In this document: positions 22,028 through 25,394 of the stretch, piece after piece
Layout: each line of letters starts with the position of its first letter
Numbering within the stretch: position 1 is the first letter of the stretch
Origin: a virus
Strand: one strand, 5' to 3'
Virus record (IMG/VR): IMGVR_UViG_3300032241_000892
Location: 1-27,167 of that record
Length of the DNA: 27,167 bases
Program-made: the position numbers and the translations under genes
Notes under the pieces: model-generated
Database searches by the model: none
What the model was told of the DNA's origin: nothing
The model's input: only the letters and a program-made list of their open reading frames with translations

Positions 22028-22176
22028 AGCCAGGACTTTATGCCAATATCCATAAAAAGAGAGAACGTATCCGTAAAGGATCAGGCGAGAGAATGAGAAC
22101 GCCTGGTTCAAAAGGCGCTCCCACCGAATCTGCTTTTAGAAAATCTAAAAAGACAGCAAGAAAATCAAGACGTTAA
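22024..22176 (+). CDS. Small polybasic protein at the end of the late arm (50 aa)
   Basis: ATG at 22024 overlaps the stop of the preceding basic gene. Fifty residues run from MKPGLYANIHKKRERIRKGS, through GERMRTPGSKGAPTESAFRK, to SKKTARKSRR. Lys and Arg make up about a third of the protein, and there are no hydrophobic segments. The RKSRR C terminus resembles that of the 13-residue micro-ORF at 2117. It is probably nucleic-acid-binding, but its role is unknown. Its TAA stop (22174-22176) overlaps the minus-strand stop of the glycosyltransferase in a TTAA palindrome. Confidence 0.65.
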   Translation: MKPGLYANIHKKRERIRKGSGERMRTPGSKGAPTESAFRKSKKTARKSRR

Positions 22177-22973
22177 GGCGCAGCTATAAGTTGACCTTCA
22201 AAGGCATACGTTCCAACGTGAGCTAATCTTACCCAAGGCGCTGCCCACACTTTACCGCCAATCAAACGCCATTGACGGCAAAAGTGATAGTCCTCAGACA
22301 ACAAACGATTGGTTTCAGGTTCAATTGAAGTAGTGAAATACTCTGCAATAGCTTCACCTTGTACCATAGTCTTGTTTAGATCCATAACATCATTGGAATA
22401 AGACGGAACATGAGGTCTTAATTTATCAAGCACTTCCCGTTTAATCATCATAAATCCTGTACCGCCATTAAAAATCTCTACTGGCTCATTCATAGGTACT
22501 GTGACCTCACCAGCGTAGTTGACTAAGTTAACTACAAAGCTACCTGTATGAAATTTAAGTTGATCCTCAGGCACACCCGCATCCATTGCTCGTTTTACGC
22601 TATTCCAGTTGATTTCTTTCTTAGGATAAATACCGCAAATAATGTCTTTATCCGCTTGTAGCATAGTCACAATATCTTTTGGATCAAACAAGATGTCTGA
22701 ATCAATAAACATTAAATGAGTGCAATTGGTCTTTAAAAAAGTCTGTGCTAAAGAGTTTCTTGCACGGGTAATTAAGCTCTCGTTAAACATAAAGCTAAAT
22801 GACAATTGAACTCCGTTGTCTGCACATATTTTAGTCAATTGCAAAATAGATTGAGTGTAAAAACCAGCACACATACCCCCATACATCGGGGTAGCCACAA
22901 ATACATTAGGTGGCACACGTTTTTGTTTTTCTTCAAACTGCTTTACGTCAAATTTTTTCTTTTTGGTAGCCAT
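22173..22973 (-). CDS. GT-A-fold glycosyltransferase (266 aa)
   Basis: This probably transfers a sugar from a nucleotide sugar to an unknown acceptor. It has an N-terminal Rossmann-like start (PPNVFVATPMYGGMCAGFY), the metal/nucleotide-binding DxD motif D91-S92-D93 in HLMFIDSDILFDP, and a GG-type acceptor-side loop (FNGGTGFMMIKREV, about residues 169-181). Towards the end lies SEDYHFCRQWRLIGGKVW, with E227-D228 as the likely catalytic acidic pair, and a terminal His (AHVGTYAFEG, H252). It is last in the minus-strand cassette, nine bases after the radical SAM gene, with AAGGAAAAATA as ribosome-binding site. Phages use such enzymes to alter their DNA, virion proteins or the host surface; which applies here is not shown. 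Confidence 0.8.
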   Translation of the reverse strand: MATKKKKFDVKQFEEKQKRVPPNVFVATPMYGGMCAGFYTQSILQLTKICADNGVQLSFSFMFNESLITRARNSLAQTFLKTNCTHLMFIDSDILFDPKDIVTMLQADKDIICGIYPKKEINWNSVKRAMDAGVPEDQLKFHTGSFVVNLVNYAGEVTVPMNEPVEIFNGGTGFMMIKREVLDKLRPHVPSYSNDVMDLNKTMVQGEAIAEYFTTSIEPETNRLLSEDYHFCRQWRLIGGKVWAAPWVRLAHVGTYAFEGQLIAAP

Positions 22974-22982
22974 TATTTTTCC

Positions 22983-24077
22983 TTAAATAAAGTTATCGGT
23001 ACTAGCGTTTACATAATCGTTAATTAATATGTTCTTGCCATCGTTAGAACATTCGTGCATACAAGTGGTTTTGGCATTGAACTTCTCAAAATACTCTTTG
23101 GTTTCTTTGCTAAACCATAGGTCTAGAAAGCGTTTGCCATTGATAGAGCCTATGCAACCAGTGCTATCGTAGGCTTTGTTGTGACACGCATACACATTGA
23201 GATCCGCCCCGATGACTGGCACGGTTTGCATGATGTAACATCTTTTATAGCTTCGTACACTAGAATGACTGCTCCCAGGAGTAATGTTATAAGTGCTATT
23301 GACACTAAAATTTTCAGAAGTAATAGTTTGGATTTTTGCAAGCTGCTCATTGACTTCATCGGCTATTTCCTTGTGATAATCATAAAAATCAGGCACGTAC
23401 ATCGGGCTGTAACGCACATTCTCAACCCCTGCCTCTTTTAATAATTGACTAAACCCCCATAAATTTTTGTAATTGTTGCGGTGCACAATATAATTTACCC
23501 CTAAATCACACGTTTTATCTTTGATGGCTGCAAAATTGTTAATGTTTTTGATAACAGAATCAAAGCTCTTTTCAGGCACGTTCCTAAAACGCTTCATTTC
23601 AGCGCCATCGGTGTAGTCCATACTGACCCTTACCCACTTGGCTTTTGACAGCACCTGGGCACGTTCCTTGGCTAAATTTTGACCATTGGTGATGATGGAT
23701 AGATCTAATTCCAACTCTAATGTTCTACGCATGATTGGCACAATGTCTGGGTGCATCAATGGCTCACCCCCACCAGAGTAAGTGACTGCTTTAGTGCCTA
23801 TACGGTGCAAGTCATACAAAATTTCCATCATCTTTTCGGTAGGTATGACATCATCCTCTTTCATATCTTCGTGCATACCGCTAATGATGTGTTCTTCTTC
23901 TCCTCCGTCTTTCACCCTGAAACCAGTGCTATACACGCAAAAGAAGCATCCATGATTACAAATGTTGATTGGCTTGATACGCACATATAGCGGTGCTAAA
24001 ACCTCCCCCGCCCCAAAAGATTTCAGTTTTTCTGGAAAATGGAATATCTTGAAATTGCTGTATTTGTTACTTTTCAC
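22983..24077 (-). CDS. Radical SAM protein with SPASM-like C-terminal cysteines (364 aa)
   Basis: The CxxxCxxC motif C40-NHG-C44-FF-C47 should bind a [4Fe-4S] cluster that cleaves S-adenosylmethionine to a radical. YSGGGEPLMHPD (G102-P106) is the SAM-binding GGE motif. The C-terminal third has further cysteines (C280, C298, C308, C339, C343; segments VYACHNKAYDSTGC and TTCMHECSNDGKN), resembling a SPASM or twitch domain that binds a second cluster and is typical of enzymes acting on peptides or sugars. It starts at a GTG in a GTGA overlap with the E1-beta stop, so is translationally coupled to it. The substrate is unknown. It sits between the thiamine-diphosphate enzyme and the glycosyltransferase. 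Confidence 0.85.
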   Translation of the reverse strand: MKSNKYSNFKIFHFPEKLKSFGAGEVLAPLYVRIKPINICNHGCFFCVYSTGFRVKDGGEEEHIISGMHEDMKEDDVIPTEKMMEILYDLHRIGTKAVTYSGGGEPLMHPDIVPIMRRTLELELDLSIITNGQNLAKERAQVLSKAKWVRVSMDYTDGAEMKRFRNVPEKSFDSVIKNINNFAAIKDKTCDLGVNYIVHRNNYKNLWGFSQLLKEAGVENVRYSPMYVPDFYDYHKEIADEVNEQLAKIQTITSENFSVNSTYNITPGSSHSSVRSYKRCYIMQTVPVIGADLNVYACHNKAYDSTGCIGSINGKRFLDLWFSKETKEYFEKFNAKTTCMHECSNDGKNILINDYVNASTDNFI

Positions 24078-24589
24078 ATTAAATCCTTGTATTCAACAAT
24101 GATGCAAGATTTATTTCTTGTCATTGCCAGCTTATACGCTGTTTTGGCAAATTCCTCATTTAACACGCTATAAACAGGTATATCGGTCATTTTTTGTAAT
24201 GCAATAGTAAAGTCTTGCACGTGTGTAGCACCTGTATATAGCGGTTTTGTAATGTTTCCTACAATGCAACGGATAATCACTTTAGGATCAAACTCATCCT
24301 TGCTAATCTCTTTGATTTTGTCTAAATGGTTCACTATTGCATCCATTGCGTTCATCAAAAAGTCCATTCTTTCGATAAAAACAACGGGTTTTAGCCCTGT
24401 TATCGCCATTCCAATAGCTACGCCCATCATCAAGTTCTCTGCAACAGGCATTTCTAAAATTTGATTGTCTGGCACGTTTTTTAAAGTGCCTAATGCACGA
24501 CCTTTTTGCAGACCATAGCCTATAAACCGTGTTTTAGGATCTTTTGCAAGCTCAGTATTTGAGCTAGTAATCTGCTCTTTGTAAGTCAT
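24074..24589 (-). CDS. Thiamine-diphosphate enzyme, Pyr-domain subunit (E1-beta-like, 171 aa)
   Basis: This matches the pyrimidine-binding domain of 2-oxoacid dehydrogenase E1-beta and transketolases. The catalytic Glu that activates the thiamine aminopyrimidine is E51 in LEMPVAENLMMGVAIGMA. VVFIERMDFLMNAMDAIVNH and YTGATHVQDFTIAL match the conserved dimer-interface segments (compare HSQ in E1-beta). Usual E1-beta proteins have about 325 residues with a C-terminal domain; here the protein stops after the Pyr domain, at VEYKDLM. Together with the adjacent E1-alpha-like subunit it should form the active site. The start overlaps the E1-alpha stop as ATGA and its stop overlaps the radical SAM start. 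Confidence 0.8.
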   Translation of the reverse strand: MTYKEQITSSNTELAKDPKTRFIGYGLQKGRALGTLKNVPDNQILEMPVAENLMMGVAIGMAITGLKPVVFIERMDFLMNAMDAIVNHLDKIKEISKDEFDPKVIIRCIVGNITKPLYTGATHVQDFTIALQKMTDIPVYSVLNEEFAKTAYKLAMTRNKSCIIVEYKDLM

Positions 24590-25203
24590 TTTTTGTCTTT
24601 AAAAATAATGTGTTTTTTAGTGCCGTTGCCAGCATGAGGATAAGTAGCCTTGTATTCATTGCGAATGACGCAAGATGGCATCTCAAATCTAAATTTATTA
24701 GGATTGCGTTCACTCAAGTTGGTGTCAACGGATCTGTTGTTATCTTCAATAATGAACATACAAGGCAAATCTTGACCTTCTACAAACATTACCGCTTCGT
24801 AAAAGTGACCTTGATCTTCAGCACCATCACCTAAAAAGCAATACACCCAATTATCGCTACCAGCTTCTTTTAATGAATACGCTACACCCGCTGCAATACA
24901 ACAAGTACTAGCCAAAATGCTTGAAGTAAAAAAATGACGATTCCTGTCGAACACAAACATAGAATCGCCACGCAAAATGCGTTCCATAAGCTCAGATTGG
25001 GGTAATCCAGCCAATAAAGCGTGATGATGATTCCGATGAGTGCTGAAAATCCAATCTCCATCTTTCATGTCCTTAAAAAAATCAATTAAGAAATTTTCGT
25101 TACCACCAGATAAGTGAATGAGGTAGGGCAGATCACCTTCTTCCCAATGATGAGCAACCTTTTGCTCAAATGCAATCAGTTGCTCTTTAGTGCAGTATTC
25201 CAT
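24586..25203 (-). CDS. Thiamine-diphosphate enzyme, PP-domain subunit (E1-alpha-like, 205 aa)
   Basis: This is the cofactor-diphosphate-binding subunit. The thiamine-diphosphate/Mg motif is clear: G125-D126-G127 in FLGDGAEDQGHFYEAVMF, closing with N155-N156 in FIIEDNN, about 29 residues apart. STHRNHHHALLAG (residues about 54-66) matches the E1-alpha YRDHG-type loop. I chose M at 25203 (MEYCTKEQ) rather than the longer frame from 25278, because this start overlaps the stop of the upstream membrane gene as TAATG. The extra 25 residues of the longer frame read out of a coding region. Full E1-alpha proteins have about 320-360 residues, so this is a shortened form, paired with the Pyr subunit immediately downstream. 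Confidence 0.82.
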   Translation of the reverse strand: MEYCTKEQLIAFEQKVAHHWEEGDLPYLIHLSGGNENFLIDFFKDMKDGDWIFSTHRNHHHALLAGLPQSELMERILRGDSMFVFDRNRHFFTSSILASTCCIAAGVAYSLKEAGSDNWVYCFLGDGAEDQGHFYEAVMFVEGQDLPCMFIIEDNNRSVDTNLSERNPNKFRFEMPSCVIRNEYKATYPHAGNGTKKHIIFKDKK

Positions 25204-25394
25204 TAATAACGCCCAATAGTTAGCCAAAAGCAATACGCAAAGATAGCAACAAACGCTAACACGCCCATAAACGCCCAAAAACCATCGTAATCAATCGTTG
25301 TTGGTCTTTGTATAGCACTTGCATAGTCAGCATCACGAAAAGCCTCTGAAGCGCTTTTATAGGTCTTGCCTAAACCATAATTAAATTTGCTCAT
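25203..25394 (-). CDS. Small single-span membrane protein coupled to the ThDP genes (63 aa)
   Basis: The 63-residue product has a polar N-terminal part (SKFNYGLGKTYKSASEAFRD, then a Tyr/Ser-rich stretch) and one hydrophobic span at about residues 39-58 (FWAFMGVLAFVAIFAYCFWL), ending TIGRY. It could anchor a partner at the membrane. It starts in an ATGA overlap with the upstream gene and its stop overlaps the E1-alpha start (TAATG), so it is probably co-expressed with the metabolic cassette. No family recognised. If the cassette makes a lipid- or envelope-linked product, a membrane tether would fit, but that is inference. Confidence 0.6.
   Translation of the reverse strand: MSKFNYGLGKTYKSASEAFRDADYASAIQRPTTIDYDGFWAFMGVLAFVAIFAYCFWLTIGRY

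What the first reader, a model, noticed from the sequence alone, without database searches (positions are those of the whole stretch)
22173..25203. Phage metabolic cassette: split ThDP enzyme, radical SAM protein and glycosyltransferase
Seen: four consecutive minus-strand genes, three of them joined by 4-base overlaps, encode an E1-alpha-like subunit with a GDG...NN motif, an E1-beta-like subunit with catalytic Glu, a radical SAM protein with CxxxCxxC and SPASM-like cysteines, and a GT-A glycosyltransferase with DxD. Known: ThDP enzymes move two-carbon or acyl units, radical SAM/SPASM enzymes modify peptides or sugars, and glycosyltransferases attach sugars. Inferred: this is a dedicated pathway that makes and attaches an unusual group to phage DNA, a virion protein, or a host glycan. 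I know of no described system with exactly this set, but cannot search.
Basis: partly seen in the sequence, partly recalled or inferred. Interest (0 to 1): 0.8.

Follow-up and report, generated by a model that had tools for sequence, protein, structure and literature searches.

The report
Phage sugar-altering enzyme trio
Hundreds of aquatic phages carry a compact carbon-joining enzyme that almost always sits next to one of two unrelated "make a ketone" enzymes, which suggests that they build an unusual sugar during infection rather than feed central metabolism.

Summary
In detail: E1-alpha-like, E1-beta-like, radical SAM and GT-A genes lie on the minus strand at 22173-25203, the first three joined by 4-base overlaps. 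The conserved unit is those three; a related phage carries the glycosyltransferase alone at the same site. The E1 pair belongs to a mostly viral family of minimal two-domain ThDP enzymes with no third domain and no lipoyl partner. Across 194 distinct loci (five from cellular genomes) the pair stands beside either this radical SAM protein (102) or an unrelated zinc alcohol dehydrogenase (84). With 3 kb of flank on both sides it is 61 against 63, none with both or neither. In one lineage the dehydrogenase sits in exactly the radical SAM gene's slot (GT9-E1b-X-E1a), so the two probably do the same job: alcohol to ketone. The radical SAM model best matches sugar-acting DesII and BlsE and has four auxiliary cysteines, as BtrN does. 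Most dehydrogenase-type loci sit beside heptose-type kinase, epimerase and nucleotidyltransferase genes. Most likely the oxidised sugar receives an acyl unit from the ThDP enzyme, as proposed for AviB1/AviB2, giving a branched or extended sugar for a glycan. The product is unknown. DNA modification is not supported.

The parts
24586..25203 (-). E1-alpha-like ThDP subunit (pyrophosphate-binding domain only, 205 aa): GDG at 125-127, DNN at 154-156, H56/H61, C-terminal P189-H190
24074..24589 (-). E1-beta-like ThDP subunit (pyrimidine-binding domain only, 171 aa): putative catalytic Glu51 in PVAEN, H123; lacks the C-terminal transketolase domain
22983..24077 (-). Radical SAM protein with one probable auxiliary-cluster (twitch-like) domain: C40/C44/C47 and C280/C298/C339/C343; predicted fold closest to DesII, SkfB and BlsE
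22173..22973 (-). GT-A type glycosyltransferase-like protein (phrog_1574, Anp1/GT2-like, DSD); neighbour of the trio but separable from it
25203..25394 (-). Small ORF (63 aa, hydrophobic C-terminus) whose stop overlaps the E1a start; matched only in the closest relatives

Best explanation
E1a+E1b form a minimal ThDP carboligase and the radical SAM protein is its dedicated dehydrogenase. Proposed order: the radical SAM enzyme takes a hydrogen atom from a carbinol carbon of a sugar (free, nucleotide-bound or already in a glycan) and oxidises it to a ketone, its four-Cys auxiliary cluster accepting the electron. The E1 pair decarboxylates a 2-oxo acid, probably pyruvate, and adds the acyl unit to that ketone, giving a branched or extended sugar. 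A nearby glycosyltransferase (GT-A in this phage, GT9-like in others) puts the sugar on a glycan of the host surface or virion. Shown: gene presence, motif conservation, fold assignment, either/or partnership of the E1 pair with rSAM or Zn-ADH, positional replacement of one by the other, absence of E2/lipoyl partners in the records searched, heptose/polysaccharide gene context of relatives. Inferred: that rSAM and ADH catalyse the same oxidation, the identity of donor and acceptor, the order of steps, and the final target.
For: (1) Partner rule: of 194 distinct E1a loci 102 have the rSAM, 84 a Zn-ADH, 8 (contig ends) neither; with at least 3 kb on both sides 61 rSAM, 63 ADH, 0 both, 0 neither; partner median gap 0-1.5 bases, same strand in 185 of 186. 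(2) Exact positional swap: GT9-E1b-rSAM-E1a (49 loci) against GT9-E1b-ADH-E1a (L121/L122); the E1a tree needs two label changes in the bootstraps. (3) rSAM/twitch enzymes and Zn-ADHs share alcohol-to-ketone oxidation; BtrN is a twitch rSAM alcohol oxidase with a four-Cys auxiliary cluster (PMC9012708); four auxiliary Cys are invariant here. (4) Fold: DesII Z 25.7 over 332 of 364 residues, BlsE Z 24.7 over 297; DesII oxidises TDP-quinovose at C3' (PMC11434129). (5) E1-alpha/beta-like pairs are proposed to attach an acetyl branch from pyruvate to a 4-ketosugar in avilamycin and paulomycin biosynthesis, followed by a ketoreductase (PMC4425429, PMC4753412); here an SDR accompanies 33 of 84 ADH-type loci. 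(6) No lipoyl domain in any of 18 records. (7) Heptose-type kinase near 69 of 84 ADH-type loci, often with EPI, NT and HAD genes (families); archaeal genome G480 has fused E1ab, rSAM, SDR and a heptosyltransferase-like gene next to HldE/GmhA/GmhB-type genes.
Against: No product, substrate or activity is known. DXS and transketolase are structurally almost as close as E1, so the donor may be a ketose phosphate. A single ADH clade is not strictly rejected (p-AU 0.059). The small window-type phages have no PF01370 nucleotide-sugar gene, so the acceptor would have to be a host sugar. Two divergent archaeal copies (second copy in G716, and G501, whose reading frame contains two TGA) have neither partner beside them. 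Loci were picked by similarity to a few queries and many come from related phages; the swap is counted two to three times, not dozens.
Confidence: 0.45

Rival explanations
1. Chain extension at the sugar-phosphate level: the E1 pair acts like DXS/transketolase, joining a two-carbon unit to an aldose (phosphate) to make a new ketose or heptose-like sugar, which the neighbouring kinase, phosphatase, nucleotidyltransferase and epimerase turn into an NDP-sugar; ADH or rSAM makes the carbonyl acceptor or adjusts the product.
For: ADH-E1ab-KIN-EPI-NT-HAD is the commonest ADH-type order (31 loci with or without SDR); KIN and NT resemble RfaE domains I and II; DXS and transketolase match by profile and by fold, transketolase Z 20.7 over 349 residues.
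Against: Sequence is closest to E1-alpha/E1-beta of 2-oxo acid dehydrogenases; rSAM-type loci lack the kinase set; the rSAM resembles enzymes of nucleotide-bound sugars.
Confidence: 0.25
2. The rSAM is a sugar epimerase, and ADH plus SDR achieve the same net inversion by oxidation and reduction; the ThDP pair then acts on the epimerised sugar.
For: An SDR accompanies 33 of 84 ADH-type loci but 1 of 108 rSAM-type loci.
Against: More than half of the ADH-type loci have no SDR of this family near by, and an archaeal rSAM-type genome has the SDR as well; a four-Cys auxiliary cluster fits an electron acceptor.
Confidence: 0.1
3. Auxiliary central-carbon enzymes: the E1 pair boosts host pyruvate dehydrogenase, acetoin or pentose phosphate metabolism.
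For: Cyanophage homologues are annotated 'transketolase central region-containing protein'; E1-alpha/beta are the nearest families.
Against: Both subunits lack the E1 C-terminal parts, no lipoyl/E2 gene, tight partnership with rSAM or ADH, location of relatives in polysaccharide clusters.
Confidence: 0.06
4. Hypermodification of phage DNA: the trio makes a group that the glycosyltransferase attaches to a modified base.
For: The genes share the early (RecT/RusA) strand and some relatives carry DNA methyltransferases between E1a and E1b.
Against: No thymidylate synthase/hydroxymethylase homologue in the window or 14 other viral contigs, several of them fragments; homologous modules occur in archaeal and bacterial polysaccharide clusters; the GT occurs without the trio.
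Confidence: 0.05

Closest known systems
AviB1/AviB2 (avilamycin) and Pau11/Pau12 (paulomycin)
   Same: E1-alpha/E1-beta-like pair among sugar-modifying genes; proposed to add a two-carbon acyl unit from pyruvate to a keto-sugar, followed by ketoreduction (PMC4425429, PMC4753412)
   Different: Pau11/Pau12 are 325/345 aa, here 205/171 aa or one 390-400 aa fusion; no strict rSAM/ADH pairing described in the papers read; actinobacterial antibiotics, not viruses. Sequences not compared here.
YerE (yersiniose)
   Same: ThDP enzyme that attaches a two-carbon branch to a keto-sugar of a surface polysaccharide
   Different: A single TPP-dependent flavoprotein (PMC4753412), recalled to be of the acetolactate-synthase type; no rSAM partner
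BtrN / DesII / BlsE radical SAM enzymes
   Same: rSAM core with C-terminal extension acting on a cyclitol or sugar; BtrN and DesII can oxidise an alcohol to a ketone; the BtrN auxiliary cluster has four Cys; DesII and BlsE are among the best fold matches
   Different: About 15-23% identity; substrate here unknown; I know of no ThDP partner in those pathways
Pyruvate dehydrogenase / 2-oxo acid dehydrogenase E1
   Same: Fold and ThDP motifs (GDG...NN, catalytic Glu, conserved His)
   Different: Lacks the C-terminal domain of E1-beta and the C-terminal part of E1-alpha; no lipoyl protein
PHROG 34187 and cyanophage 'transketolase central region-containing protein'
   Same: Same family, fused form
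   Different: Listed with unknown function; neither the split form nor the rSAM/ADH partnership is recorded in the entries seen here

Membership tests
2-oxo acid dehydrogenase E1 (PDH/BCKDH) | ThDP-binding GDG-X(24-27)-N motif and catalytic Glu | tested here: met
   194/194 and 176/183
2-oxo acid dehydrogenase E1 (PDH/BCKDH) | full-length alpha (about 325-365 aa) and beta with C-terminal transketolase domain | tested here: not met
   205 and 171 aa; model of the fusion aligns to E1-beta residues 1-177 only
2-oxo acid dehydrogenase E1 (PDH/BCKDH) | lipoyl-bearing E2 partner encoded by the same phage | tested here: not met
   no PF00364 in 18 records; several are fragments, and a host E2 cannot be excluded
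Transketolase / DXS | three-domain architecture and family-level score | tested here: not met
   third domain missing; TIGR00204 far below cut-off (28 vs 466 bits)
AviB1/AviB2-type sugar acylation pair | E1-alpha/beta-like pair in a sugar-modification cluster without E2 | tested here: met
   met for relatives; in the window the only sugar-type neighbour is the GT
AviB1/AviB2-type sugar acylation pair | sequence kinship to AviB1/AviB2 | not tested
AviB1/AviB2-type sugar acylation pair | transfer of C2 to a keto-sugar | not testable with these tools
   needs biochemistry
Radical SAM superfamily | CxxxCxxC and radical SAM core fold | tested here: met
   PF04055 1e-19; 32/32 conserved; AF2 pLDDT 89, DesII Z 25.7
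BtrN-like twitch rSAM dehydrogenase | single auxiliary cluster with four Cys ligands | tested here: inconclusive
   exactly four further (nearly) invariant Cys (C280, C298, C339, C343), but ligation not shown; BtrN fold Z 17.4 over 224 residues
BtrN-like twitch rSAM dehydrogenase | oxidation of a secondary alcohol | not testable with these tools
   inferred from one-for-one exchange with Zn-ADH
Glycosyltransferase GT-A | family-level profile hit and DxD | tested here: inconclusive
   DSD present; Anp1 27.8 bits under cut-off 28.8; phrog_34859 glycosyltransferase 1.8e-7

The most novel reading that the evidence does not exclude
A virus-dominated ThDP enzyme family with two interchangeable, chemically unrelated oxidising partners (radical SAM or zinc dehydrogenase) makes a previously undescribed branched or extended heptose-type sugar that phages put on the host surface or their own virions during infection.
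Probability: 0.35. Interest if true: 0.8.

Novelty: new variant of a known kind. Interest (0 to 1): 0.62.

Why it matters
Homologues in cyanophage genomes carry the name 'transketolase', so they may be read as central-carbon auxiliary genes; the context found here says that they belong to sugar/glycan synthesis. The either/or exchange of radical SAM and zinc dehydrogenase points to one likely reaction (alcohol to ketone) and makes an otherwise opaque viral pathway testable. If right, phages build sugars that no known host pathway makes, a possible route to superinfection exclusion or virion camouflage.

Tried and rejected
DNA hypermodification: searched for thymidylate synthase-type genes, none in the small phages. 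PDH-type AMG: no lipoyl domain. GT as obligate fourth member: same GT found without the trio at the same site. Plasmid origin: no match to the family in PLSDB. Solved relatives of the GT by sequence: only spurious PPR matches. Literature: no paper found on this set in the library held; the marine AMG survey PMC4053976 lists 'tkt' in an algal virus, not this cyanophage protein, so it is not evidence that this gene was counted there. The GmhA annotation of a cyanophage gene was not confirmed by Pfam or NCBIfam; I call that gene HAD-like only from its sequence. My 'fused' flag was wrong (profile contaminated by fused proteins) and was redone with domain-specific profiles.
Full report
What is there. 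The four minus-strand genes are real and at the stated place. The first three are joined by 4-base overlaps, the GT follows after 9 bases, and the set is the downstream end of the strand that carries RecT- and RusA-like genes; it ends tail to tail against the lysis genes on the plus strand. The rest of the window is a tailed phage: portal, major head protein, tail fibre, virion structural protein, endolysin, spanin. The window is a virus record of 27167 bases, probably a fragment.

Families. E1a matches PF00676 and TIGR03182; E1b matches PF02779 and PRK09212; both score far below the equivalog cut-offs. PHROG 34187 (unknown function) is the fused form: E1a matches its first half and E1b its second half. 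The subunits are minimal, 205 and 171 aa. A model of the natural fusion from L099 (pLDDT 88) matches E1-beta only over residues 1-177 (Z 21.5) and transketolase over two domains (Z 20.7, 349 residues), so the third domain of both families is missing. ThDP motifs are kept in nearly all homologues checked.

Recurrence. The cassette at the same genome position recurs in about 60 viral contigs. Order and spacing vary: the gap between E1a and E1b may hold DNA methyltransferases or small ORFs.

The partner rule. I fetched more than 300 loci with several differently centred queries, removed those with an identical E1a core, and scored neighbours with profiles built here. Of 194 loci 102 have the rSAM family member, 84 a zinc MDR dehydrogenase, 8 neither; the 8 lie near contig ends. 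With 3 kb on both sides: 61, 63, 0 both, 0 neither. The rSAM type is always split (102 of 102), the ADH type almost always fused (80 of 84). The dehydrogenases keep zinc-ligand-type residues (C45, H68, C150) and a GxGGxG motif. Over whole contigs, ADH_N is found only in ADH-type records. The E1a tree needs at least two changes of partner (one ADH clade gives p-AU 0.059, so a single origin is disfavoured but not strictly rejected). L121 and L122 have GT9-E1b-ADH-E1a where 49 relatives have GT9-E1b-rSAM-E1a: a one-for-one replacement in place. The ADHs of these split loci form one starred clade of their own.

What the partners have in common. A zinc dehydrogenase and a twitch-type rSAM share one reaction, oxidation of an alcohol to a ketone. 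BtrN is the documented rSAM case, with a four-Cys auxiliary cluster (PMC9012708); that NAD-dependent enzymes do the same step in other aminoglycoside pathways is from my own knowledge. The window rSAM family has, besides CxxxCxxC, exactly four further (nearly) invariant cysteines. Its model (pLDDT 89) matches DesII (Z 25.7, 332 residues), SkfB (24.8) and BlsE (24.7, 297 residues, 23% identity), and BtrN less well (17.4). DesII and BlsE act on sugars carried by a nucleotide or base, and DesII oxidises TDP-quinovose to a ketone (PMC11434129). A shared fold does not prove a shared substrate.

Sugar context. In cyanophages the fusion lies in a sugar operon. Near 69 of 84 ADH-type loci there is a PfkB kinase resembling heptose-7-phosphate kinase, often followed by epimerase, adenylyltransferase-like and HAD-like genes. 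In archaeal genome G480 the fused E1ab, an rSAM of the viral type and the SDR lie beside a heptosyltransferase-II-like gene and HldE/GmhA/GmhB-type genes. Bacterial and archaeal MAG loci look like polysaccharide clusters. The window-type phages carry no PF01370 nucleotide-sugar gene and would have to draw on host sugars.

Mechanism. [quoted passage not shown]). The modules here have the parts for that scheme: ketone maker (rSAM or ADH), carboligase (E1), often an SDR, and a glycosyltransferase. I commit to this at about 0.45; the main rival is chain extension at the sugar-phosphate level, which the kinase set would fit. All chemical steps are inferred.

The glycosyltransferase. Its homologues occur in 63 phage records. 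In the related complete phage MW202753 it stands alone after RusA, and that record has no E1 match. It may use the trio's product here, but it is not part of the conserved unit.

Limits. The sample is not random; many loci come from related phages. The name 'GT9-like' for the viral neighbour is by similarity of its profile and context; the L093 member itself has no Pfam hit. Two divergent archaeal copies break the partner rule. Donor, acceptor, product and target are unknown.

Noticed in passing
L097:5157-7280: The rSAM homologue of a 199-kb viral contig is interrupted by an intein exactly inside the CxxxCxxC motif (CNHDCFFC|LVAGTRV...VVHN|C).
   Followed up: no
L051:6392-7492, L050:6935-7492, L018:3011-3708, L016:2233-2780: The gap between E1a and E1b in relatives is an insertion hot spot: DNA methyltransferase-like ORFs, or one or two small ORFs that mostly begin MNNEPVAW and end LRKAQEK, apparently duplicated.
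   Followed up: partly
L351:8872-10039 and L352:9244-9828: Divergent archaeal E1 copies with neither rSAM nor ADH beside them; the G501 copy has two in-frame TGA.
   Followed up: partly
L002:15474-15812: Cyanophage P-TIM68 gene annotated 'phosphoheptose isomerase' has no Pfam or NCBIfam support; it looks HAD-like.
   Followed up: partly
L334:5508-6741: Complete phage MW202753, related to the window by head genes, carries RusA followed directly by the GT: the site without the trio.
   Followed up: yes
L098:5875-7998, L103:7547-10935, L106:8696-10880: Second, more distant rSAM paralogues (HKLMYHPERV type) stand beside the E1 pair in cellular genomes and one viral contig, so one pathway may use two rSAM steps.
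   Followed up: no
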